From positions 62,001-126,000 of the forward strand of contig JACZJT010000023.1 of assembly GCA_014860445.1 (NCBI GenBank): a DNA stretch of 64,000 nt. Reading direction: 5' to 3'. Positions 36,893-48,654 of this stretch are shown here, piece by piece. Source of the DNA: Burkholderiales bacterium (GTDB lineage Bacteria; Pseudomonadota; Gammaproteobacteria; Burkholderiales; SG8-39). Position 1 is the stretch's first letter. Each line of letters starts with the position of its first letter. The notes under the pieces were generated by a model. It did not search any database. It saw only the letters and a list, made by a program, of their open reading frames with translations, and was not told the origin of the DNA. Both the position numbers and the translations under genes were made by a program.

Positions 36893-36933
36893 TTGATCTA
36901 GGTCAAAACACCTGATTCCCAAGGGAAGATACT
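36893..36933 (+). promoter_or_regulatory. FNR/CRP-family operator with class II promoter
   Basis: TTGAT-CTAG-GTCAA (36893-36906) matches the FNR consensus TTGAT-N4-ATCAA with one mismatch, and sits inside a larger imperfect inverted repeat AGGTGT...ACACCT (36887-36913). GATACT at 36928-36933 is a plausible -10 box; transcription from about 36940 would put the operator centre near -40.5, the position of an FNR-activated class II promoter. Which family member binds (FNR, ANR, DNR) cannot be told. Confidence 0.7.
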
Positions 36934-37163: not shown

Positions 37164-38126
37164 ATGAACGCGAATGCAATGTCCAATTTCGAAATCGTCG
37201 CGCGCGAGGATTTCTCCGATGTCACCTATCTTCTCGAGGTGCGCCATCCGCTGATGTCCAAGGCGGCCAAGCCGGGGCAATTCGTGATCGTCATGTTGAA
37301 CGAGCACGGCGAGCGCATCCCGCTGACCATCGCGGACTTCGACAGCAAGAAGGGGACCATTACGCTGGTGATCCAGGCCGTGGGCAAGACGACCAGGCAG
37401 ATGCAGCAGGAATGCAGGGTCGGTACCTCGCTCTACGGCATGGTCGGCCCCATGGGCATACCCAGCCCGATCAGCCACGCGAAAAAAGTCGTGTGCGTGG
37501 GCGGCGGCCTGGGCGTCGCGCCGATTTTCCCGCAGGCGCGCGGCTTCAAGCAGGCCGGTGCGTATGTGATCGCGGTCCTCGGTTTTCGCAACAAGGACCT
37601 CGTGTTCTGGGAAGACAAGTTCAAGGACTGCTGCGACGAACTCATCCTTTGCACCAACGACGGTTCGGCCGGAATGAAGGGCATGATCACCGACGGCATC
37701 AAGGTCGCCATGGCGGGACACCCCGATATCGACGAGGTGGTCGCGATCGGTCCGCCGGTGATGATGAAGGCCTGCGCCGACGCGACGCGCGCGGCCAAGA
37801 TCAAGACCATGGTGAGCGTCAACCCGATCATGGTCGATGGCACCGGGATGTGCGGCGGCTGCCGGGTGAAGGTCGGTGATCAGGTGAAGTTCGCCTGCGT
37901 GGACGGTCCGGACTTCGACGGGCATCTGGTCGATTTCGACGACCTGATGCTGCGCCTGCAGCGCTACACCAAGGTCGAGAAAGACGCGCACGAACGCTGG
38001 TCGGAAAGCTGCCGCATGACCAAGCAGGTCGGCCCCAGTGCGCTGGATGAGCTTGCGCGCGGCCGCGCTCCGCAAAAGGAGCTGCTCGAACTGCCTGATC
38101 CGTTCGAGGATGCGCCCGGGGGTTGA
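37164..38126 (+). CDS. NfnA-like FAD/[2Fe-2S] oxidoreductase subunit (sulfide dehydrogenase beta type)
   Basis: 320-residue ferredoxin-NADP reductase-fold flavoprotein. N-terminal FAD domain (PGQFVIVMLNEHGERIPLTIAD), NAD(P) domain (VVCVGGGLGVAPIFPQARGFKQAG, AIGPPVMMKAC), then the [2Fe-2S] region VDGTGMCGGCRVKV...FACVDGP. The first ligand position is Asp (D225) instead of Cys, with C230, C233 and C245: the Asp-Cys3 pattern described for Pyrococcus sulfide dehydrogenase/NfnA rather than PyrK. A C-terminal extension (about 255-320) is variable. Start ATG 37164 follows GAGGCGGA; 37140 and 37179 are alternatives. Pairs with the next gene. Confidence 0.88.
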   Translation: MNANAMSNFEIVAREDFSDVTYLLEVRHPLMSKAAKPGQFVIVMLNEHGERIPLTIADFDSKKGTITLVIQAVGKTTRQMQQECRVGTSLYGMVGPMGIPSPISHAKKVVCVGGGLGVAPIFPQARGFKQAGAYVIAVLGFRNKDLVFWEDKFKDCCDELILCTNDGSAGMKGMITDGIKVAMAGHPDIDEVVAIGPPVMMKACADATRAAKIKTMVSVNPIMVDGTGMCGGCRVKVGDQVKFACVDGPDFDGHLVDFDDLMLRLQRYTKVEKDAHERWSESCRMTKQVGPSALDELARGRAPQKELLELPDPFEDAPGG

Positions 38127-38211
38127 TTCGGTTCGATGATTGATTTCGCGGCATTGCGGCGATAGTCGGGCACCGCCCGATCACCCGCGACAGCCGTTCG
38201 AGGATAAGGAC

Positions 38212-39711
38212 ATGGCAAAGAAGAAAACCATACGCAGCATCCCCCAGGAACGCACGCCGATGCGCGAGCAGGAACCGCAGGTTCGCGCCAAAAACTTCGA
38301 GGAAGTCGCCTGCGGCTACAGCCTCGAGGACGCATTGCGCGAATCCGAGCGCTGCCTGATGTGCCCGGACGAGCCCTGCATTTCGGGCTGCCCCGTGGGC
38401 ATCAATATTCCGGGTTTCATCCAGAAGATCGGCGAAAAGAACCTGCGCGGCGCTTACGACATTCTCACCGACACCAATCTGCTGCCCTCGATCTGCGGCC
38501 GCGTGTGCCCGCAGGAGAACCAGTGCGAAGGCGTGTGCACCGTGGGCGATTCGCTGGAAGCGGTGGCGATCGGTCGCCTGGAGCGCTTCGTCGGCGACAC
38601 CGCCCTCAAGGAAGGTTGGGTCAACATCCCCTACATCGAACCCAACCGCTATCGCGTCGGCATCGTCGGCTCGGGACCGGCCGGCATGGCCTGCGCCGCC
38701 GACATGGCCAAGTCCGGATGCGACGTCACCGTCTACGAAGCTTTCCACGAGCCGGGCGGGGTGCTGAAATACGGCATCCCGGACTTCCGCCTCCCCAACA
38801 CGGTCATCGACGCCGAGATCAACAATCTCAAGAAATTCGGCGTCAAATTCGAATGCAACACCCTCGTAGGCCGACTGTTCACGATCGAGCAGATGATCGA
38901 CGAGATGGGCTTTCACGCCGTATTCGTCGGCGTCGGCGCGGGCTATCCGACCATGCTCAATATTCCCGGCGATTCCCTGAACGGTGTGCTCTCCGCCAAT
39001 GAAATGCTCACGCGTTGCAACCTGATGCGCGGCAGGGACTTCCCGGATTTCGACACGCCGATGCCCATAGGCAAGCGGGTCGCCGTCGTAGGCGCGGGCA
39101 ATACGGCGATGGACGCGACGCGCGTATCGCTGCGCCTGGGTTCGGAAAAAGTGTACTGCGTCTATCGCCGCTCGCGCACGGAAGCGCCTGCGCGGGCGGA
39201 AGAAGTGCACCACGCCGAGCAGGAAGGCGTGGAATTCCACTGGCTCACCGCGCCGGTGGCGGTGCTCGACGACGGCAAGGGCGGCGTGCGCGGCATGCGC
39301 TGCGTGCGCATGGAACTGGGCGAGCCCGACGAATCCGGCAGGCGCCGTCCGGTACCCGTGGCCGGCAGCGAGTTCGATTTCGAGACCGACCTGATCATTT
39401 ACGCGATTGGCACCAATGCGAACCCGATCATGGGACAAACGTCGAAACTCAAGCTGAACAAGTGGGGTTATATCGGCGCCGACGAAAATCTCGCCACTTC
39501 CGTGGCGGGCGTGTTTGCCGGCGGCGACATCGTCACCGGCGCGGCGACCGTGATCGAGGCCATGGGCGCGGGGCGCAGGGCCGCACGCAGCATGAAGGCC
39601 TATCTGGGAATCCGCGACACAGGGCTTCCCTATGTCTCGAGCGAGGGAGCCGGCACGCTATTCGGGATCGATGTGCGCGAGCGCAATTTCGCGCGCGTAC
39701 GCATCGCCTAG
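38212..39711 (+). CDS. NfnB-like FAD/2[4Fe-4S] oxidoreductase (GltD / glutamate synthase small-subunit type)
   Basis: 499-residue protein. N-terminal double-cluster domain: C48, C51, C56, C60 (CLMCPDEPCISGCPVGINIPGF) and C95, C99, C105, C109 (CGRVCPQENQCEGVC). Then FAD (VGIVGSGPAGMACAADMAK) and NAD(P) (VAVVGAGNTAMDATR) Rossmann motifs and the C-terminal GVFAGGDIVTGAATVIEAMGAGRRAA flavin segment. Adjacency to an NfnA-like gene indicates the two-subunit NADH-dependent ferredoxin:NADP+ oxidoreductase type rather than glutamate synthase, whose large subunit is absent. AGGATAAGGA precedes the ATG at 38212. Confidence 0.88.
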   Translation: MAKKKTIRSIPQERTPMREQEPQVRAKNFEEVACGYSLEDALRESERCLMCPDEPCISGCPVGINIPGFIQKIGEKNLRGAYDILTDTNLLPSICGRVCPQENQCEGVCTVGDSLEAVAIGRLERFVGDTALKEGWVNIPYIEPNRYRVGIVGSGPAGMACAADMAKSGCDVTVYEAFHEPGGVLKYGIPDFRLPNTVIDAEINNLKKFGVKFECNTLVGRLFTIEQMIDEMGFHAVFVGVGAGYPTMLNIPGDSLNGVLSANEMLTRCNLMRGRDFPDFDTPMPIGKRVAVVGAGNTAMDATRVSLRLGSEKVYCVYRRSRTEAPARAEEVHHAEQEGVEFHWLTAPVAVLDDGKGGVRGMRCVRMELGEPDESGRRRPVPVAGSEFDFETDLIIYAIGTNANPIMGQTSKLKLNKWGYIGADENLATSVAGVFAGGDIVTGAATVIEAMGAGRRAARSMKAYLGIRDTGLPYVSSEGAGTLFGIDVRERNFARVRIA

Positions 39712-39786
39712 GCGGACACAGGCCCGGGTCATCAACGGCAGCAACACATACTCAACAGCGGCTCAACAGCAGCGACGGACGAAAAC

Positions 39787-41697
39787 ATGAATCAAATGAC
39801 CAAGCAAAAACCGGCCAAGAAAGCCGTACAAAAACCGAAGGCAGCGACTAGCGTCAAAGCGCCCGTCAGGCTGAAAGAGCACATAGTCGAGATCATCAGC
39901 GATTCCGGAGAGGGCGCACAGAAGTGCGGCCAGTCCCTGGGCGCGATTGCCGCGCAAATGGGCAACGGTATCTGGACCACGGAAATCATTCCGGCCGAAA
40001 TCCGCCCGCCGGCGCGCAGCGTTGCCGGCGCGAGCGGCAACCGCATCCGCATCGGCTCGGGCTATATCACCAACGGCGGCGACGAGACCGACATGGTGGT
40101 GGCGTTCAACGAGCAGGTGCTCCTTGGCCGTGTCCGTGCGAAAGAGCTCAAGCCCGGCTGCACCATCCTGCTGGAAGACATGTGGCGCACGCACGCCGAT
40201 CCGAAAATCGTCGCGTCCTACATTGAGACCCATGACGCGCTGGTCAAAGCGGGATACAAGGTCATCGAGATACCGATGGAGCGCGAATGCCGCACCATGG
40301 TCGCAGATCCGCGCCGAGGCAAGAACATGTATGCCCTCGGCATGCTTTGCTACATCTACAGCCTGGAACTGAAACTGGCCGTGGACCAGATCGTGCTCGC
40401 CTTCGGCAAGAAGGACCAGAGCGTGGTGGATTCGAACATCATGCTGCTCGAGGCCGGGCACAAGTGGGCGGCGGCCAATCTGGATTTCTGCTACAGCATC
40501 CCGGCGGTGCGCTCGACCGAGCCGCAACTCGTGGTCAACGGCAACACCTCGCTGGCCTTGGGCGTGCTCGCATCGGGGATGGAAATCTGCGCCATGTACC
40601 CGATCACGCCCGCCACCTCGGCTTCGCACTATCTGTCCGAAGTGTTCGAGAAAGTGGGCGGCATGGTGCACCAGGCCGAGGACGAGATCGCCGCCTGTGC
40701 CTTTGCCATCGGCGCCTCTTACGCAGGCAAATGCACGGTCACGATCACCTCCGGTCCCGGATATTCGCTCAAGCAGGAGGCGATCGGCCTGGCGGTGATG
40801 GGAGAAATTCCCCTGGTCGTGGTGAACGTGCAGCGCGGCGGCCCGAGCACGGGTCAACCGACCAAGATGGAACAGGGCGATCTCATGACCGCCATATTCG
40901 GCAGCCACGGCGACGCGCCCAAGGTGGTGATGGCGCCGGGCACCATCGAGGAATGCTTTTACTCGATCATCACCGCGCGCAAAATCGCCGAAACCTTCAA
41001 CATGGTCGTGGTGGTGCTGACCGACGCCGCGCTTGCCACCTCGCAGCAGCCGTTTCCGCGCCCGCAGTTCAATGAATCGTGGATGGCACCGCCGGTCGAC
41101 CAGAGTCCGGTTCCCGCGGGTGCGAAGCCCTATGACTGGGACGATACGACCGGCCTCGCGCGCCGCTTCATTCCGGGCCAGCCCGGCGGCATGCACACGC
41201 TGACCGGCCTTGCGCACGACCGCGACAGCCATGTGGCCTACGACGCCGAAATCAACGAGCAGACCCTGCGTTTTCGCAGCCTGAAACTGGCCGCGCTGCA
41301 AAAGACATTGAAAGCGCCGAAGGTGTTCGGTGATCCCAAGGGCGACCTGCTGGTCGTCGGCTGGGGCAGCACCAAGGGCGCGATCGAGGAAGCGGTCGAG
41401 ATGTTGCGCGCCGAAGGAAAGAAAGTGTCTTCCCTGCACCTGCAGTTTCTGCAGCCCATGGCTCCGGGAATCAAGGAAATTCTGCAGGGGTTCAAGAAGG
41501 TCATGACCGTAGAGAGCAACTGGAGCGACCGCCCCGACGACAAGATCATCGACGAGTCGAATCGCCGCTATTCGTCCATGGCCATCCTGTTGCGCTCGCG
41601 TTTTCTGATCGATATCGACTGCTTCAGCGAGGTGAAGGGCCAGCCGATCAAGCCCGGCACCATCCGCCGCGTGATGCTGGAAAAACTGAAAAAGTAA
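39787..41697 (+). CDS. 2-oxoacid:ferredoxin oxidoreductase, fused gamma-alpha subunit
   Basis: 636-residue KorA/ForA-type protein. After a Lys/Ala-rich N-terminal stretch (1-30) comes the gamma domain (about 32-230, SDSGEGAQKCGQSLGAIAAQMG). The alpha domain follows (about 245-636): MYPITPATSASHYLSEVFEKVGG, AFAIGASYAGKCTVTITSGPGYSLKQEAIGLAVMGEIPLVVVNVQRGGPSTGQPTKMEQGDLMTAIFGSHGD, and a transketolase C-like end (LLVVGWGSTKGAIEEAV). It oxidatively decarboxylates a 2-oxoacid with CoA and reduces ferredoxin, together with the beta subunit downstream. The substrate (2-oxoglutarate, pyruvate or branched) cannot be fixed from sequence. Confidence 0.9.
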   Translation: MNQMTKQKPAKKAVQKPKAATSVKAPVRLKEHIVEIISDSGEGAQKCGQSLGAIAAQMGNGIWTTEIIPAEIRPPARSVAGASGNRIRIGSGYITNGGDETDMVVAFNEQVLLGRVRAKELKPGCTILLEDMWRTHADPKIVASYIETHDALVKAGYKVIEIPMERECRTMVADPRRGKNMYALGMLCYIYSLELKLAVDQIVLAFGKKDQSVVDSNIMLLEAGHKWAAANLDFCYSIPAVRSTEPQLVVNGNTSLALGVLASGMEICAMYPITPATSASHYLSEVFEKVGGMVHQAEDEIAACAFAIGASYAGKCTVTITSGPGYSLKQEAIGLAVMGEIPLVVVNVQRGGPSTGQPTKMEQGDLMTAIFGSHGDAPKVVMAPGTIEECFYSIITARKIAETFNMVVVVLTDAALATSQQPFPRPQFNESWMAPPVDQSPVPAGAKPYDWDDTTGLARRFIPGQPGGMHTLTGLAHDRDSHVAYDAEINEQTLRFRSLKLAALQKTLKAPKVFGDPKGDLLVVGWGSTKGAIEEAVEMLRAEGKKVSSLHLQFLQPMAPGIKEILQGFKKVMTVESNWSDRPDDKIIDESNRRYSSMAILLRSRFLIDIDCFSEVKGQPIKPGTIRRVMLEKLKK

Positions 41698-41713
41698 GAG
41701 TGAAGCAATACGA

Positions 41714-41781
41714 GGCCATTTCAGGTTTACCGAAATGGCCCCTGAATTAGGAGAGCACGAGGGGAGGTATCCCCTCGTTTT
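41714..41781 (+). other. two tandem perfect hairpins between alpha and beta subunit genes
   Basis: Hairpin 1: GGCCATTTC (41714-41722) with GAAATGGCC (41732-41740), 9-base loop. Hairpin 2: ACGAGGGGA (41757-41765), loop GGTA, TCCCCTCGT (41770-41778), followed by TTTT (41778-41781). The second looks like a weak intrinsic terminator. Lying 17 bp after one subunit gene and 36 bp before its obligate partner, they may adjust transcript level or processing. Confidence 0.75.
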
Positions 41782-41816
41782 GAAACAGGCTCTAAGAAAC
41801 GAAAGGTGAAAAAACC

Positions 41817-42815
41817 ATGAACATGATGTCCGACATGAATTCCGCCACCGCCTGCCTGCTGCAGATGACCGACGAGCACTTCCAGCTCGAGGACTATCAG
41901 AGCGGCGTGCCGCGCTGGTGCACGGGCTGCGGCGACAACGCCATTCTCGCGGCGGTGCAGCGCCTGTGCCGCGACGAAGCGCTGCGCCCGGAGAAGACCG
42001 TGTTCGTATCCGGCATCGGCTGCTCCAGCCGCTTTCCGCATTACATGAAGACCTACGGTTTCCATGGCATACACGGGCGCGCGCTGCCGGTGGCAGAGGG
42101 CGTGAAAATGGCGCGCCCCGACCTGACCGTGTTCGTGAATACCGGCGACGGCGACTGCACCAGCATCGGTGCGGCGCACTGGATCCACGCCATCCGCTAC
42201 AACATGAACCTCACCGTGTTCCTGCACGACAACCAGATTTACGGCCTGACCAAGAAACAGGCCTCGCCCACCTCGCCCATCGGCACCAAGAGCAACACCA
42301 CGCCGCGCGGCAGCTACCTCGAGGCCTTGAACCCGCTGACCGTCACGCTGGGCGTGCAAAACGTGTCCTTCGTCGCGCAGGCCGCCGACTGGATACCGGA
42401 GGTGCTGTTCGACATCGTCAAGGCGGCTTATCACCATCGCGGATTGTCCTTCGTGCGCATCATCCAGCGCTGCCCCGAGTGGCTGCCGAAAGCGCTCGAT
42501 CCGTGGATGCACGATCCCAACAAGGTGCTGTTGCTCAATCATGCGAACGGACTGCAGGCCAGCGCCGGCCTGTCGCGGGTGTACAAGAATCAGATCGAGC
42601 ACGACCCGCTGAACATCGACCGCGCGCGCGAAATCGCCTCCGACACCGAGACCATTCCGGTCGGAATTCTGTACAACAACCCGGCGGTTCCCTGCTACGA
42701 GGATCTGCGCCAGAGCGACAAGCTGCGCACCGCCGATCTGACCCGCGCCGGGCTCAATGCGGAGCTGGACAAGTACACGGTCTGGCCGCAGGGCGCGGAA
42801 CAGAAGGTGGCCTGA
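41817..42815 (+). CDS. 2-oxoacid:ferredoxin oxidoreductase, beta (TPP) subunit
   Basis: 332-residue KorB-type subunit. [4Fe-4S] ligands: C35 and C38 (RWCTGCGD), C69 (GIGCSS) and the Cys in IIQRCPEW. The TPP site is intact: GDGDCTSIGAAHWIHAIRYNMNLTVFLHDNQIYGLTKKQ (from residue 110) and the SPTSPIGTKSN loop. It is therefore expected to be catalytically competent with the alpha subunit encoded upstream. Confidence 0.92.
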   Translation: MNMMSDMNSATACLLQMTDEHFQLEDYQSGVPRWCTGCGDNAILAAVQRLCRDEALRPEKTVFVSGIGCSSRFPHYMKTYGFHGIHGRALPVAEGVKMARPDLTVFVNTGDGDCTSIGAAHWIHAIRYNMNLTVFLHDNQIYGLTKKQASPTSPIGTKSNTTPRGSYLEALNPLTVTLGVQNVSFVAQAADWIPEVLFDIVKAAYHHRGLSFVRIIQRCPEWLPKALDPWMHDPNKVLLLNHANGLQASAGLSRVYKNQIEHDPLNIDRAREIASDTETIPVGILYNNPAVPCYEDLRQSDKLRTADLTRAGLNAELDKYTVWPQGAEQKVA

Positions 42816-42912
42816 GACGAACAGCGCAATACGCCGGCGCGCGCCATCGACCGTTACGACGGGCGCCTTAACCGATCACACAGAACTCATCAGCAAGGCA
42901 GGTTGACAAAAC

Positions 42913-45114
42913 ATGGAAGCGGATACCCAGGCACACGTTGCTTTTTTTCTGACCGGCAGGCGGCCCAGCCAGCATCTGGACGCGGTAGACGGGTTGAAAT
43001 TGCGCCCGGCGCTTTTCGCCGGCTATCGCGAGCTCACCCAGCTGCGCTACGATTTTCCTTTGGTACTGGTCGCACAGCCATCGAATAAGCTGTTCGTGCA
43101 GTCCCTGTCGGGCATCGTTGACGCGGCCCTGTCCACTGCTGCGCGCGGCAGCAATGCCGAGCGCATCCGCAAGCACGCGCTGCGCATGGAGCAGGAAATT
43201 CGCGTTCTGGTCGCAGGCGGCGCAAGCGGGTCGCTTTCCACCCTGTGGGACAAGGCGGCCACGCGTCTCGCCAGGGACAGCGACAATACGCTCGCGGACA
43301 GCCTGCGGCGTACGCGCAAGGCGATCACTACAGACGGCGAACTCGCCGATTGCGACGCGGCCCTGCCCGCGCGTCTGCTGCAGCATGCCTGGAGCGCGGT
43401 GCAGAAGCAGAAGTCCGAGGATTTCCGCAAGGACCTGGACCGTCTGGTGCTGAAGCTATCCGACATTCTCAAGGCGGATTTCCAGCGCTCCGAGGCCGGT
43501 CGCAGCGCCAAACACCTGAAAGAAGCCGTGGGCAGCGGATTCGACAATGCCTTTGACTTCGATGCGATGTCGCAACTGCTCGCGAAGGCCCTGCCGAAGG
43601 ACGCATTTCCCGAGAGCCGGCGCAAACGCATACGCGAACTGCTGGCGGTGCTCGGTGCGCAGCAATTCTATCGCTCCGCGGATGCCGCCCCGAAGAAGGG
43701 TACGGCCAAGCCCTATTCGTTTCTTTTCGACAGCTGCGCCGGTGCGCTTGCCGCGTTTCGGGAGCGCATGCCCAAGCTGATCGAGCTGGCCAGGGCGATC
43801 GCCGTCGCCGAACTCGAAATCGACGGGCAATACAGCGAATCCAAGCATGACGCCCTGTTCGAGCAGTTCGGGGCCAACGGACTCGATCCGCAGGACCTGG
43901 CGCCGTTCCCCGACTACCTGGTATGCGTCAGCGCCGAAAAGATGCTTCCCGAAGAACAGTCGCAGCTCATGGAAATTCTCTCCTCGGGCCTGCCGATCAA
44001 GGTGCTGCTGCAGATCGACGACATCCTCGAGGAGGCGACCGGCGGAGAAGGCAATCTCGCAGCGGGCATGCGCAGCCGGCAGATCGCCAACATGGCCATC
44101 GGCCTGAACGAAGTCTATGTGCTGCAGTCCTCCAGTTCGAATCTCTACCGCTTCCGCGAACCCATGTTGCGCGGCCTTGCCTATCGCGGGCCCGCCTTGT
44201 TCAGCGTGTATTCGGGCGCCAACGCGAAGGCCTCCGACCTGCCTCCCTATCTGATGTCCGCCGCGGCGATGGAATCGCGCGCCTTCCCTGCATTCACCTA
44301 CGATCCGTCTGCGGGCGCGAACTGGGCGGCGCGTTTTTACCTCGAAGCCAATTCGCAGGTCGATCTGGACTGGCCGGTACAGGGTTTCGCCTACGAGAAT
44401 GAAGAGCACCAGCGGGTGTCGGAGGATCTCGCCTTCACCCTGGTCGATTTCTTTGCGAGCGACCGCCGCTATGCCCGGCATCTTGCGCGGGTGCCGCGCG
44501 AGAAGTGGAACGGCAGCATGATCCCGGTGGACGAGTCCCTGTCGCGCGAGCGCAAGGGTCTGCCGGACAAGGTGCCCAGCCTGTTGATGGTCGATGCGGA
44601 CAATGTGTTGCAGCGCGTGATCGTCGACGAGCGTCTGATCCGCGAAGCGCGCCGCTGCCGCGAAATGTGGCACAGCCTGCAGGAACTGGGCGGGGTGCAC
44701 AATTCGCATGCGGAAAAGCTGCTCGCGCGCGAACGCAGCGCCTGGGAAGAGCGCATGAAGCAGGAAGCGGAAGCCCACGCCGAGGCCGCGCCGGTGGCGG
44801 CAGCGAGTGCGCCCGCCGCGTCTGCCACGGCCGCTGTGGCGGTCGAGGAGGAAGCGGAACGCTCGCCCGACGAGGCCTACATCGAGACACCGCGCTGCTC
44901 GACCTGCAACGAGTGCACCACGCTCAACAGCAAGATGTTCGCCTACGACAACAACAAGCAGGCCTATATCGCGGACATCAATGCCGGCACCTACGCGCAA
45001 TTGGTGGAGGCCGCCGAGAGCTGCCAGGTGTCCATCATTCACCCGGGCAAACCGCGCAATCCGAATGAGCCCGGCCTGGAAGAACTGCTCAAACGCGCAG
45101 AGCCTTTCCTGTAA
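42913..45114 (+). CDS. degenerate PFOR-like protein with C-terminal [4Fe-4S] ferredoxin domain
   Basis: 733-residue protein, not assignable to a characterised family. Residues 1-290 are mostly helical and unrecognised. Residues about 340-500 resemble the C-terminal TPP domain of single-chain pyruvate:ferredoxin oxidoreductase (IKVLLQIDDILEEATGG; ANMAIGLNEVYVLQSSSSNLYRFREPMLRGLAYRGPALFSVYSG; AMESRAFPAFTYDPSAG), but the Mg-TPP motif GDG...N is missing. A basic/Ala-rich linker (about 610-655) leads to a single-cluster ferredoxin domain: C662, C665, C668 and C704 (CSTCNEC...SCQVSIIHPG), with KMFAYDNNKQAYI between. I infer a structural or electron-transfer subunit of the upstream 2-oxoacid oxidoreductase. 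Confidence 0.7.
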   Translation: MEADTQAHVAFFLTGRRPSQHLDAVDGLKLRPALFAGYRELTQLRYDFPLVLVAQPSNKLFVQSLSGIVDAALSTAARGSNAERIRKHALRMEQEIRVLVAGGASGSLSTLWDKAATRLARDSDNTLADSLRRTRKAITTDGELADCDAALPARLLQHAWSAVQKQKSEDFRKDLDRLVLKLSDILKADFQRSEAGRSAKHLKEAVGSGFDNAFDFDAMSQLLAKALPKDAFPESRRKRIRELLAVLGAQQFYRSADAAPKKGTAKPYSFLFDSCAGALAAFRERMPKLIELARAIAVAELEIDGQYSESKHDALFEQFGANGLDPQDLAPFPDYLVCVSAEKMLPEEQSQLMEILSSGLPIKVLLQIDDILEEATGGEGNLAAGMRSRQIANMAIGLNEVYVLQSSSSNLYRFREPMLRGLAYRGPALFSVYSGANAKASDLPPYLMSAAAMESRAFPAFTYDPSAGANWAARFYLEANSQVDLDWPVQGFAYENEEHQRVSEDLAFTLVDFFASDRRYARHLARVPREKWNGSMIPVDESLSRERKGLPDKVPSLLMVDADNVLQRVIVDERLIREARRCREMWHSLQELGGVHNSHAEKLLARERSAWEERMKQEAEAHAEAAPVAAASAPAASATAAVAVEEEAERSPDEAYIETPRCSTCNECTTLNSKMFAYDNNKQAYIADINAGTYAQLVEAAESCQVSIIHPGKPRNPNEPGLEELLKRAEPFL

Positions 45115-45363: not shown

Positions 45364-46782
45364 ATGGACCCGTTCGCCGAAGCAGAAACCAATTTTCTTG
45401 AACATTACCCGGACTACTGGACCACGACGCCGATCGAAGCGCTGCGCCATGCCGAGTACGGGCAGCTTAATCGACTAGGGCATTGCTACCTGGATTACAC
45501 CGGGGCCGGACTGTATGCCGGCACGCAGATTAAAGAACACATGCAGTTGCTGCTTGCGGATGTGTTCGGGAATCCTCACTCCTCCAGTCCCACGTCGGCG
45601 CTGGCCACGCGCCTGCTCGAGCGTGCGCGCGGTGCTGTGCACGACTTCTTCAATGCGTCCCCGGATGAATACATCGTCGTGCTCACGCGCAACGCGACCG
45701 GCGCGCTCAAGCTGGTGGGCGAGTCCTATCCCTTCGATGACGCCAGCCGCTTCCTGCTGACACTGGACAACCACAATTCCGTCAACGGAATTCGCGAGTT
45801 CGCACGCACCCGCGGAGCCGCAGTCAACTACTCCCCGCTGATGCTGCCCGATATGCGCATAGACCGGGAGAGTCTCGCTGCGCATTTGGAAGCTTCCGGC
45901 GACACGACGCACAAGTTGTTTGCCTATCCCGCACAGTCCAATTTTTCCGGCGTGCAGCATTCCCTAGACTGGATCGAGTTCGCGCATGCGCGCGGGTGGG
46001 ACGTGCTGCTGGACGCAGCGGCCTACGTGCCCGCCAACAGACTGGACCTGGAGCGGGTAAAACCGGATTTCGTTTGCGTTTCCTTCTACAAAATGTTCGG
46101 CTATCCGACCGGGGCGGGCTGTCTGATCGCGCGCAAAGCCGTGGTGCCGAAACTGCACAGACCGTGGTTCTCCGGCGGGACGATCACTGTGGCGTCGGTC
46201 AAGGGCGACCGCCACTATCTGCACAGCGGGCCCGAAGCCTTCGAGGACGGGACGCCGGACTATCTGAGTGCGCCTGCGATCGAGATCGGATTGAAACAGC
46301 TCACAGGTATCGGCTACGAGATGATCCATGCCCGCGTCGCAGCCCTGACCGGCTGGATGCTCGAGCAACTGGGGGCATTGCGCCACGGCAACGGGATGGC
46401 GGTAGCGCGCATCTACGGACCGGACACCATGGATGCGCGCGGCGGTACGCTCGCATTCAATATTTTCGACAAGGACGGCCAGTTCATTGATCATCGGATC
46501 GTGGAGGAGCGCGCGGCCGCCATGAACATTTCCCTGCGCACCGGCTGCTTTTGCAACCCTGGCGGCGGCGAGGTGGCGCTGGGCATTTCCGAGGAGGAGC
46601 TCAGCGCATGCTTCTCCCGGACGCCAAGCGGTATGACGCTGGACGATTTTCGCGTGTGCATAGACGACAAGAGCAGCGGTGCGGTGCGGATTTCCTTCGG
46701 GCTGGTAAGCAACTTCGAAGACGCCTACCATTTCCTGCAATTTGCCATGCGCTTCGTCGATAAGCGCGCTGTCGATATCTAG
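45364..46782 (+). CDS. class V aminotransferase, molybdenum cofactor sulfurase-like
   Basis: 472-residue PLP-dependent enzyme of the aminotransferase V/cysteine desulfurase fold. The N-terminal CYLDYTGAGLYAGTQIKEHM and FGNPHSSSPTS, the Schiff-base Lys K243 (SFYKMFGYPTGAGCLI) and LRTGCFCNPGGG with C395 and C397 resemble the NifS-like domain of eukaryotic MOCOS/ABA3, where the Cys of this motif carries the persulfide. The MOSC domain of those proteins is absent. The likely reaction is desulfuration of cysteine for sulfur transfer; the acceptor is unknown. Confidence 0.75.
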   Translation: MDPFAEAETNFLEHYPDYWTTTPIEALRHAEYGQLNRLGHCYLDYTGAGLYAGTQIKEHMQLLLADVFGNPHSSSPTSALATRLLERARGAVHDFFNASPDEYIVVLTRNATGALKLVGESYPFDDASRFLLTLDNHNSVNGIREFARTRGAAVNYSPLMLPDMRIDRESLAAHLEASGDTTHKLFAYPAQSNFSGVQHSLDWIEFAHARGWDVLLDAAAYVPANRLDLERVKPDFVCVSFYKMFGYPTGAGCLIARKAVVPKLHRPWFSGGTITVASVKGDRHYLHSGPEAFEDGTPDYLSAPAIEIGLKQLTGIGYEMIHARVAALTGWMLEQLGALRHGNGMAVARIYGPDTMDARGGTLAFNIFDKDGQFIDHRIVEERAAAMNISLRTGCFCNPGGGEVALGISEEELSACFSRTPSGMTLDDFRVCIDDKSSGAVRISFGLVSNFEDAYHFLQFAMRFVDKRAVDI

Positions 46783-47889: not shown

Positions 47890-47967
47890 GCTACGGTCAT
47901 GCAGGCGCGCAGGCACTCTGTCCGGTTTTGCGTTCACCTGAATTAGGCAGATAATTTGACATCACCC

Positions 47968-48654
47968 ATGTCCAATTTTCTGCTCGATCTGAGTTTTGGC
48001 GTCAAACGGCCGGACGGTTATGTGTCCGACATCTGGCGTGCCTACACCACGCGCCTGGGTGACTTTCGCCTTGCAACGCGTTCGATTACCGGGGTGGAGG
48101 AATACAGTTTCAACAAATCCGGCATGTGCCGCAGCGCCCACAGCGGAGCGGAGGAGACGCCGGAAGCCCTGCGCGACCGTGCCGGTTTCAAGTGGCGCCG
48201 CGCCGTCACACCGCCGCGCGGCAGCGGCAGGGCGGCGCGCGTGGCCTGGATCGCTTTCCCCACGGACTACCTGTCGCGGCCCAGCGTGGAAGATGACGGA
48301 GAGATTTTCTGGATCGCGGCTGCGCCGGCGAGTGGCGCAACCTACGTGGAGTTCGCCTATGCAGCCGAACCGGAGCAGGGAATTCGCGGCGTGCTCGATG
48401 TCGTGCAGGACCGGACGCTGGTGCGCTGCGCCGCGCTACCCAACGGCGAAACGCTGGTGATCTTTTGCTATCACGCCGACTGGGAGAACAAGGATCTGCG
48501 CGTGCCGGGAAACGGCGTGGCCGCCGACGTCCTGTTTTCCGCCGATGATCCGCTGGCGACCGGGCGCCCTTTGCGCCATCGCTTCGGTCCGATGCCCAAG
48601 GACGAGGAGGCGGTGCTGCTGCTGGAAATGGGCGGGACCGCGGTCACCAATTGA
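47968..48654 (+). CDS. uncharacterised protein, 228 residues
   Basis: No family recognised. It is a soluble protein without signal peptide or membrane segment, beginning MSNFLLDLSFGVKRPDGYVSDIW and rich in aromatic residues and acidic patches. Codon usage and GC match the neighbours, and start and stop fit neatly between dinB and the exonuclease, so it is probably a real gene. A TTG four codons upstream (47956) is an alternative start. Confidence 0.65.
   Translation: MSNFLLDLSFGVKRPDGYVSDIWRAYTTRLGDFRLATRSITGVEEYSFNKSGMCRSAHSGAEETPEALRDRAGFKWRRAVTPPRGSGRAARVAWIAFPTDYLSRPSVEDDGEIFWIAAAPASGATYVEFAYAAEPEQGIRGVLDVVQDRTLVRCAALPNGETLVIFCYHADWENKDLRVPGNGVAADVLFSADDPLATGRPLRHRFGPMPKDEEAVLLLEMGGTAVTN

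What the first reader, a model, noticed from the sequence alone, without database searches (positions are those of the whole stretch)
37164..45114. Five-gene module joining an Nfn-type transhydrogenase pair to a 2-oxoacid:ferredoxin oxidoreductase and a degenerate PFOR-ferredoxin protein
Seen: five co-directional genes with short gaps encode NfnA-like and NfnB-like flavoproteins, a gamma-alpha subunit, a TPP beta subunit and a protein ending in a ferredoxin domain. Known: Nfn couples NADH, NADPH and ferredoxin, sometimes by flavin bifurcation; Kor/For enzymes reduce ferredoxin from 2-oxoacids. Inferred: the cluster makes one complex or channel turning 2-oxoacid oxidation into NADPH (or the reverse, driving reductive carboxylation), with the fifth protein as dedicated ferredoxin. 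I know of no described complex with this composition.
Basis: partly seen in the sequence, partly recalled or inferred. Interest (0 to 1): 0.85.

Follow-up and report, generated by a model that had tools for sequence, protein, structure and literature searches.

The report
Operon wiring keto-acid enzyme to NADPH
Five linked bacterial genes encode a keto-acid enzyme, an NADPH-linked electron-splitting enzyme and a worn-out relative of another keto-acid enzyme that has kept its scaffold and an iron-sulfur tail, which probably passes electrons between the first two when oxygen is absent.

Summary
NfnA, NfnB, a gamma-alpha KorA, a TPP-binding KorB and a 733-aa fifth protein lie co-directionally at 37164-45114. 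Every locus with a true fifth protein and at least 5.7 kb upstream has the same order (25 of 25). In 120 relatives, all 24 genomes with this KorA type also have the fifth protein. Nfn and Kor ligands are intact in all 25 loci. The fifth protein aligns almost end to end with the C-terminal 895 residues of giant PFORs (probability 100, E 5e-58); it lost the TPP and internal Fe-S motifs but kept a 4-Cys ferredoxin tail. Such giants sit beside Rnf genes or a fused Nfn. New here: an FNR/Anr-type box precedes nfnA in 23 of 27 loci, and in its family the module co-occurs with benzoyl-CoA reductase (25 of 29 versus 8 of 43 genomes), although those clusters carry a different KorAB. Most likely it is an anaerobic 2-oxoacid:NADP+ oxidoreductase whose fifth subunit is a PFOR pseudoenzyme with a tethered ferredoxin. 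Complex formation, substrate and direction are untested. New variant of a known kind.

The parts
36893..36906 (+). FNR/Anr/Dnr-type palindrome TTGATCTAGGTCAA upstream of nfnA (motif and its name recalled)
   Evidence: Only match with at most 1 mismatch in the 64-kb window, though 0.85 are expected there by chance. A site matching at least 8 of 10 positions lies within 400 bp upstream of nfnA in 23 of 27 loci; at 9 of 10 or better, 16 sites in 10.8 kb upstream versus 7 in 490 kb elsewhere in the same loci.
37164..38126 (+). NfnA-like small subunit (FAD, NAD(H), [2Fe-2S] with Asp225, Cys230, Cys233, Cys245)
   Evidence: E 5e-93 to P. furiosus NfnI small subunit; ligands conserved in 25 of 25 loci.
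38212..39711 (+). NfnB-like large subunit (FAD, NADP(H), two [4Fe-4S])
   Evidence: E 6e-169 to 4ylf; Glu124 aligns with the Glu126 cluster ligand of PfNfnL (PMC9503767, passages); 8 Cys and Glu124 conserved in 25 of 25 loci.
39787..41697 (+). KorA: fused gamma (POR) and alpha (POR_N) subunit of a 2-oxoacid:ferredoxin oxidoreductase
   Evidence: Pfam and TIGR03710; 6n2n E 2e-74; YPITP motif in 25 of 25 loci.
41817..42815 (+). KorB: TPP-binding beta subunit with one [4Fe-4S] (Cys35, 38, 69, 219; GDGD at 110)
   Evidence: ligands in 25 of 25 loci.
42913..45114 (+). Fifth protein: PFOR-derived pseudoenzyme with a C-terminal single-cluster ferredoxin tail
   Evidence: hhalign to five giant PFORs: probability 100, E 5e-58, 24% identity, profile positions 10-736 to 737-1631; one match in its own genome.
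43915..44028 (+). Segment of the fifth protein (residues 335-372) where the TPP motif of the PFOR TPP domain has been lost
   Evidence: Aligned with the GGDG...N stretch of giant PFORs; motif absent in all 19 aligned fifth proteins.
44875..45048 (+). Ferredoxin tail of the fifth protein (residues 655-712; Cys662, 665, 668, 704)
   Evidence: Fer4_13; ferredoxin I 1dax, E 0.0014 with the single sequence and 9e-5 with the profile; 4 Cys kept in 12 of 12 tails aligned, six of them from giant PFORs.

Best explanation
The operon encodes an anaerobically expressed 2-oxoacid (most likely 2-oxoglutarate) oxidoreductase wired to NADP(H). Shown: the composition; the tight five-gene linkage; intact Kor and Nfn cofactor ligands; the fifth protein's descent from the C-terminal half of a giant PFOR, with loss of the TPP and internal cluster motifs but retention of a 4-Cys ferredoxin tail; and an FNR/Anr-type box before nfnA in most loci examined. 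Inferred: KorAB oxidises the 2-oxoacid with CoA and reduces the KorB cluster. The fifth protein, whose PFOR ancestor carried a TPP domain of the same Pfam family as KorB, docks on Kor as a scaffold, and its flexibly linked ferredoxin tail carries electrons to the NfnB clusters. Nfn then combines them with NADH to make NADPH (2-oxoacid + CoA + NADH + 2 NADP+ -> acyl-CoA + CO2 + NAD+ + 2 NADPH) or, reversed, charges the tail from NADPH. In anaerobic aromatic degraders this would conserve 2-oxoglutarate electrons as NADPH and reduced ferredoxin instead of the NADH made by the 2-oxoglutarate dehydrogenase that most of these genomes also encode.
For: Five-gene order in 25 of 25 loci with a true fifth protein and at least 5.7 kb upstream. 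All 24 genomes of 120 relatives with this KorA type (E <= 1e-150) also have the fifth protein. Glu124 of NfnB, Asp225 of NfnA and the Kor ligands are in 25 of 25 loci. Fifth = giant PFOR C-terminus. Giant PFORs have Rnf genes beside them in L042, L043, L101, L102 and L112 (RnfC above its cut-off in the four tested, RnfB-like proteins below theirs) and a fused NfnB-NfnA after them in L103 and L104. L043 and L112 also hold the KorAB most like the window's outside the five-gene loci (KorA 58%, KorB 50-53%). The fifth protein's tail is 58-60% identical to the tails of those two giants, its body 27-28%. FNR-type box. OGDH E1 present in 26 of 29 module genomes. Module and BcrB: 25 of 29 versus 8 of 43 genomes of the family, p 1e-8; genera 11 of 11 versus 3 of 15, p 5e-5.
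Against: No physical or enzymatic test was possible. Both AlphaFold2 models are unusable (mean pLDDT 57.5 and 44.2) and Foldseek found nothing at E <= 0.001. The substrate is not determined. Benzoyl-CoA reductase clusters in this family carry another KorA (17 of 22 loci; 29-38% identical to the window KorA), so the module is not needed to explain electron supply to that enzyme. Fifteen of 32 module genomes reached through loci have no BcrB match above the cut-off (7 none, 8 weak or fragmentary). The FNR-type box is missing in 4 of 27 loci, the Alphaproteobacterial one and the three of the Acidobacteriota class. The same genome has a second, fused Nfn beside a normal PFOR, so Nfn activity is not unique to the module.
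Confidence: 0.55

Rival explanations
1. Same parts run the other way: Nfn takes electrons from NADPH (giving some to NAD+) to reduce the tethered or free ferredoxin, and Kor acts as a 2-oxoglutarate synthase for reductive carboxylation, or the low-potential electrons go to benzoyl-CoA reductase.
For: The special Nfn cluster ligands are present. AadN, a fused Nfn of Rhodopseudomonas palustris, is needed for growth on benzoate (PMC9973337, abstract and passages). Strong co-occurrence with BcrB. No NfnA- or NfnB-like gene was found in the 22 benzoyl-CoA reductase loci searched, some of them short, so this Nfn could be a link from NADPH to ferredoxin.
Against: KorA of another type next to the reductase in 17 of 22 loci can already supply ferredoxin. 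Reductive-TCA marker genes were not tested. The nearest KorAB relatives sit with Rnf, which usually accepts electrons from ferredoxin (general knowledge).
Confidence: 0.22
2. The five genes are merely co-regulated: Kor and Nfn are independent soluble enzymes that talk through the general ferredoxin pool, and the fifth protein is an assembly, stability or oxygen-protection factor for Kor.
For: Solved Kor and Nfn homologues have no such partner among their listed molecules. A protein X without Pfam match and without a ferredoxin tail follows KorB in the Rnf-type clusters L043 and L112.
Against: The four tail cysteines are invariant (19 of 19; 24 of 24 with the tail on the contig) and the tail is far better conserved than the body when compared with giant PFORs, which points to electron transfer.
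Confidence: 0.18
3. The Kor of this module uses another 2-oxoacid (for example an aromatic or branched-chain one), so the module belongs to a specific catabolic path and not to central metabolism.
For: Substrate cannot be read from the sequence; the genome has 13 POR-domain matches, so substrates are probably divided among paralogues.
Against: Best solved homologue of KorA is 6n2n (deposited under a generic oxidoreductase name, its 2-oxoglutarate activity is recalled); no gene of an obvious catabolic path was recognised next to the module.
Confidence: 0.2

Closest known systems
[quoted passage not shown] P. furiosus NfnI
   Same: Two separate subunits in the order nfnA-nfnB, same domains, cluster ligands including the Glu and Asp
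   Different: Tightly linked to a Kor pair and a PFOR-derived protein; the gene-arrangement legend of PMC6405883 names PFOR among nfn neighbours but no Kor (passages and section 6 seen; figure not seen)
2-oxoglutarate:NADP+ oxidoreductase of Azoarcus evansii (KorABC; recalled, paper not held)
   Same: Kor-type core coupled to a flavoprotein and NADP+ in an anaerobic aromatic degrader (recalled)
AadN of Rhodopseudomonas palustris (PMC9973337, abstract and passages)
   Same: Nfn-type enzyme tied to anaerobic aromatic metabolism
   Different: Single fused protein; the strains tabulated have AadN or KorAB or neither, never both; no PFOR-like partner described in the passages seen
Giant PFORs (1,629-1,679 aa in the five aligned) beside Rnf genes or a fused Nfn (L042, L043, L101-L104, L112)
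   Same: Fifth protein is homologous to their C-terminal 895 residues including the ferredoxin tail
   Different: The two giants scanned keep POR_N, PFOR_II, POR, Fe-S and TPP domains in one chain; the fifth protein has none of these
KorABCD with the bifurcating Hdr-Flx and PntAB in the Riftia symbiont (PMC11636981, passages)
   Same: 2-oxoglutarate:ferredoxin oxidoreductase clustered with a putative electron-bifurcating system
   Different: Different bifurcating enzyme, reductive TCA context, no PFOR-derived protein mentioned in the passages seen
Pyruvate:NADP+ oxidoreductase of Euglena and phenylglyoxylate:NAD+ oxidoreductase PadEFGHI (both recalled)
   Same: Works like: an OFOR wired to a flavoprotein so that the product is NAD(P)H
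   Different: Other flavoprotein types; membership not claimed

Membership tests
Nfn, pattern A | Separate small and large subunit genes in the order nfnA-nfnB, homologous over nearly full length | tested here: met
   order definition from PMC6405883 section 6; 25 of 25 loci
Nfn, pattern A | [2Fe-2S] with one Asp ligand and proximal [4Fe-4S] with one Glu ligand | tested here: met
   Glu124 = PfNfnL Glu126 by alignment; Asp225 in the conserved stretch before the [2Fe-2S] cysteines (which Asp is the ligand is recalled); both in 25 of 25 loci
Nfn, pattern A | Ferredoxin-dependent transhydrogenase with flavin-based bifurcation | not testable with these tools
   Needs enzyme assays
2-oxoacid:ferredoxin oxidoreductase, Kor type | POR and POR_N domains fused in the alpha subunit; TIGR03710 above cut-off | tested here: met
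2-oxoacid:ferredoxin oxidoreductase, Kor type | Beta subunit with TPP motif and four Cys for one [4Fe-4S] | tested here: met
   Cys35, 38, 69, 219 align with cysteines of 5b46 beta; GDGD at 110; their role as ligands is recalled. TIGR02177 itself is just below its cut-off.
2-oxoacid:ferredoxin oxidoreductase, Kor type | 2-oxoglutarate as substrate | not testable with these tools
   Inferred only from homologues
PFOR (pyruvate:ferredoxin oxidoreductase) for the fifth protein | Homology to PFOR | tested here: met
   hhalign probability 100 to giant PFORs; one giant searched matches PFOR structures 6cin and 1b0p. Direct searches of PDB with the fifth protein or its profile found no PFOR.
PFOR (pyruvate:ferredoxin oxidoreductase) for the fifth protein | TPP motif, internal Fe-S motifs and N-terminal catalytic domains | tested here: not met
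   Absent in all 19 aligned members; no POR, POR_N or TPP domain match; only 8 Cys in the window protein, 4 of them in the tail. It is therefore not filed as a PFOR.
Single-cluster [4Fe-4S] ferredoxin domain | CxxCxxC plus a distal Cys | tested here: met
   Fer4_13 score is exactly at the cut-off
A. evansii 2-oxoglutarate:NADP+ oxidoreductase | Subunit make-up and sequence match to KorABC | not tested
   Paper and sequences not held

The most novel reading that the evidence does not exclude
A dead PFOR has been recruited as a permanent electron-relay subunit, turning a ferredoxin-dependent Kor and a bifurcating Nfn into one five-subunit 2-oxoacid:NADP+ oxidoreductase. The same ferredoxin tail is an interchangeable exit plug that connects 2-oxoacid oxidoreductases to Rnf (for NADH and an ion gradient) in some phyla and to Nfn (for NADPH) in others.
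Probability: 0.4. Interest if true: 0.75.

Novelty: new variant of a known kind. Interest (0 to 1): 0.6.

Why it matters
If right, it shows how bacteria route electrons from 2-oxoacid oxidation to a chosen carrier by a tethered ferredoxin instead of a shared pool, and gives a bifurcating 2-oxoacid:NADP+ oxidoreductase. It would also bear on anaerobic aromatic degradation: how TCA-cycle electrons are kept at low potential or as NADPH. The PFOR pseudoenzyme offers a clean test of whether a catalytic domain can be reused purely as an electron-transfer scaffold.

Tried and rejected
Dedicated donor for benzoyl-CoA reductase: weakened, because 17 of 22 reductase loci carry another KorA and several module genomes lack the reductase. 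Of the 5 reductase loci without one, four are cut by a contig end on the side where KorA lies in the others; in L100 about 9 kb of that side is held and neither KorA nor the other reductase genes were found there, which I cannot explain. Replacement of a missing 2-oxoglutarate dehydrogenase: rejected, E1 present in 26 of 29 module genomes. Nitrogenase donor: rejected in this family, nifH in none of the 29 module genomes (8 of 120 relatives overall). Recent decay of a PFOR: rejected, 27 of 27 fifth genes read are open to a stop codon and the family is conserved. Homology of protein X (after KorB in L043 and L112) to the fifth protein: looks plausible by eye, but profile comparison is weak (probability 2 to the fifth protein, 34 to giant PFORs), so it is not claimed. 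Literature: the searches listed no paper that I could recognise as describing a Kor-Nfn-PFOR-like operon; most hits were seen as listings only, the library holds open-licence papers, searches returned nothing and only unrelated papers.

Limits of the counts: the family test treats related genomes as independent (hence the genus count, which I made by hand from the listings) and uses E <= 1e-80 for BcrB, E <= 1e-10 for the fifth protein after removing two giant-PFOR hits (G270, G420). Two genomes counted as lacking the fifth protein (G343, G395) hold module-type NfnA-NfnB cut by contig ends, so they may have it. The five genomes with the fifth protein but no KorA hit all have it too near a contig end. 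In one search I gave 31 of the 32 loci plus G000; L040 was left out as the same assembly as L031. One search looked at 48 loci: 25 true fifth loci have at least 5.7 kb upstream; one more with that flank, L112, is a giant PFOR beside Rnf genes. One search used base-composition shuffles, not dinucleotide ones, and related loci. A1 holds the window and 18 of the 32 loci. Only two of eight genomes of family f37 with a giant PFOR were read further.
Full report
OBSERVATION. The window holds five + strand genes at the stated coordinates with gaps of 85, 75, 119 and 97 bp. Domain searches assign NfnA, NfnB, a fused gamma-alpha KorA and a TPP-type KorB; the fifth protein has only a C-terminal single-cluster ferredoxin domain, right at Pfam's cut-off. 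Solved relatives are Nfn enzymes and 2-oxoacid:ferredoxin oxidoreductases. Cluster and active-site residues of Nfn and Kor are present, including the Glu ligand that PMC9503767 (passages seen) tested in P. furiosus Nfn.

CONSERVATION. A scan of 84,980 genomes with short patterns from the fifth protein returned 32 loci, mostly metagenome assemblies titled Betaproteobacteria or Burkholderiales, with Acidobacteria, Vicinamibacteria and one Alphaproteobacterium. Together with loci from later searches, I compared 48 loci. Of those with a true fifth protein, 25 have at least 5.7 kb upstream, and all 25 carry NfnA-NfnB-KorA-KorB-Fifth in one order on one strand. The rest are cut by contig ends; the one other locus with that much flank (L112) is a giant PFOR beside Rnf genes. 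Ligand positions checked in NfnA, NfnB and KorB and the KorA motif are identical in 25 of 25, the four tail cysteines in 24 of 24 (L028 ends before them). In 120 relatives, 24 have this KorA type and all 24 have the fifth protein; five more with the fifth protein lack a KorA hit, each too near a contig end. In a sample of 149 genomes of the class of an Acidobacteria genome, 4 have the KorA type: three with the five-gene module and one with an Rnf cluster.

WHAT THE FIFTH PROTEIN IS. Profile comparison aligns positions 10-736 with positions 737-1631 of five aligned giant PFORs of 1,629-1,679 aa (probability 100, E 5e-58, 24% identity). One giant searched matches solved PFORs and two scanned keep POR_N, PFOR_II, POR, Fe-S and TPP domains. 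In the fifth protein both Cys-rich motifs of the PFOR ferredoxin-like domain are gone, the TPP motif is gone, and of the proximal-cluster CxxC only one cysteine (Cys147, invariant) remains in the alignment. The tail with Cys662, 665, 668 and 704 is intact; it is 58-60% identical to the tails of the giants in L043 and L112, 41-43% to those of L042, L101 and L102 and 24% to that of L103, while the body is 27-28% identical to L043 and L112. So it is a PFOR-derived pseudoenzyme that kept a ferredoxin.

RELATED ARRANGEMENTS. In L112 (Acidobacteria-class genome) and L043 (Gemmatirosa kalamazoonensis plasmid 1) the order is KorA-KorB-X-RnfB-giant PFOR-RnfC, with KorA 58% and KorB 50-53% identical to the window's. 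In L042, L101 and L102 the giant PFOR sits with RnfB- and RnfC-like genes and no such KorAB was found. RnfC is above the family cut-off in the four loci scanned; the RnfB-like proteins are below theirs. The window's own genome has a further pairing, a fused NfnA-NfnB protein of 796 aa about 0.7 kb from a normal 1,212-aa PFOR. Coupling of 2-oxoacid oxidoreductases to Rnf or Nfn therefore recurs; the window module is the version in which the PFOR part is dead and Kor does the chemistry. That X is a further relative is only weakly supported.

REGULATION. An FNR/Anr-type palindrome (consensus recalled) starts 271 bp before nfnA, after a tRNA-Lys gene. Alone it means little: 0.85 such matches are expected in the window. 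But 23 of 27 module loci have a site matching at least 8 of 10 positions within 400 bp upstream (shuffled mean 1.4), 16 match at least 9 (shuffled mean 0.09), and the density is 16 in 10.8 kb against 7 in 490 kb elsewhere in the same loci. Distances range from 63 to 292 bp, so this is not simply unchanged flanking DNA, though the loci are related. Four loci lack it: the Alphaproteobacterial one and three of the Acidobacteria class. Five stretches with reductase clusters (L055, L056, L081-L083) had no site at 9 of 10.

PHYSIOLOGICAL CONTEXT. Within the family (72 genomes), benzoyl-CoA reductase subunit B occurs in 25 of 29 module genomes and 8 of 43 others (Fisher p 1e-8); by genus 11 of 11 versus 3 of 15 (p 5e-5). 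Of 32 module genomes reached by loci, 17 are above the family cut-off, 8 have weak or fragmentary matches and 7 none. Seventeen of 22 reductase loci carry a KorA of another type, 29-38% identical to the window KorA; four of the other five are cut on that side and one (L100) is not explained. So the module is a second, unlinked Kor. 2-Oxoglutarate dehydrogenase E1 is present in 26 of 29 module genomes and nifH in none.

MECHANISM. The best reading is that under anoxia KorAB oxidises a 2-oxoacid, probably 2-oxoglutarate, the tethered ferredoxin tail of the pseudo-PFOR carries the electrons, and Nfn turns them with NADH into NADPH; PMC6405883 (passages seen) gives the Nfn reaction as favourable in that direction (-20 kJ/mol). 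The reverse use, charging ferredoxin from NADPH, cannot be excluded. Binding of the fifth protein to Kor, its electron transfer, the substrate and the direction are inference.

COMPARISON AND VERDICT. Four of the five proteins are normal members of known families. The principle of an OFOR linked to NADP(H) is known (A. evansii enzyme, recalled; PFOR near nfn in PMC6405883; Kor with Hdr-Flx in PMC11636981; AadN in PMC9973337). What I did not find in print is a Kor-Nfn operon with a PFOR-derived ferredoxin protein. I rate it a new variant of a known kind.

Noticed in passing
L127:2430-10138 (own genome, contig C55): Fused 796-aa Nfn about 0.7 kb upstream of a conventional 1,212-aa PFOR (TIGR02176 above cut-off) and a dihydroorotate dehydrogenase-like protein (NF005741 above cut-off): a second oxidoreductase-Nfn pair in the same genome.
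   Followed up: partly
L055 and L056 (own genome, contigs C4 and C12): Two benzoyl-CoA reductase clusters, each next to a KorA of another type, the two KorA 86% identical over the part held.
   Followed up: partly
L112, L043: KorA-KorB-X-RnfB-giant PFOR-RnfC superclusters in an Acidobacteria-class genome and in Gemmatirosa kalamazoonensis plasmid 1; X of L112 (372-aa ORF) has no Pfam match.
   Followed up: partly
   Followed up: partly
L100 (G330, same genus): BcrB match without the other reductase subunits or KorA in the 12 kb held; assembly fault or a lone gene.
   Followed up: no
L002 and L003 (own genome, C57 and C61): Two parallel pairs of POR-domain matches (open frames of 217 aa and of 536 or 543 aa) about 5 kb apart on each contig; perhaps phenylglyoxylate-type enzymes, not checked.
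   Followed up: no
window 45364-46782: Class-V aminotransferase gene after the module; directly adjacent in L014 but about 8.8 kb away in L020 and not detected between the module and dinB in L010 and L011, so the module's downstream border is variable.
   Followed up: no
window 47956-48654: 232-aa ORF without any Pfam match at E 0.001.
   Followed up: no
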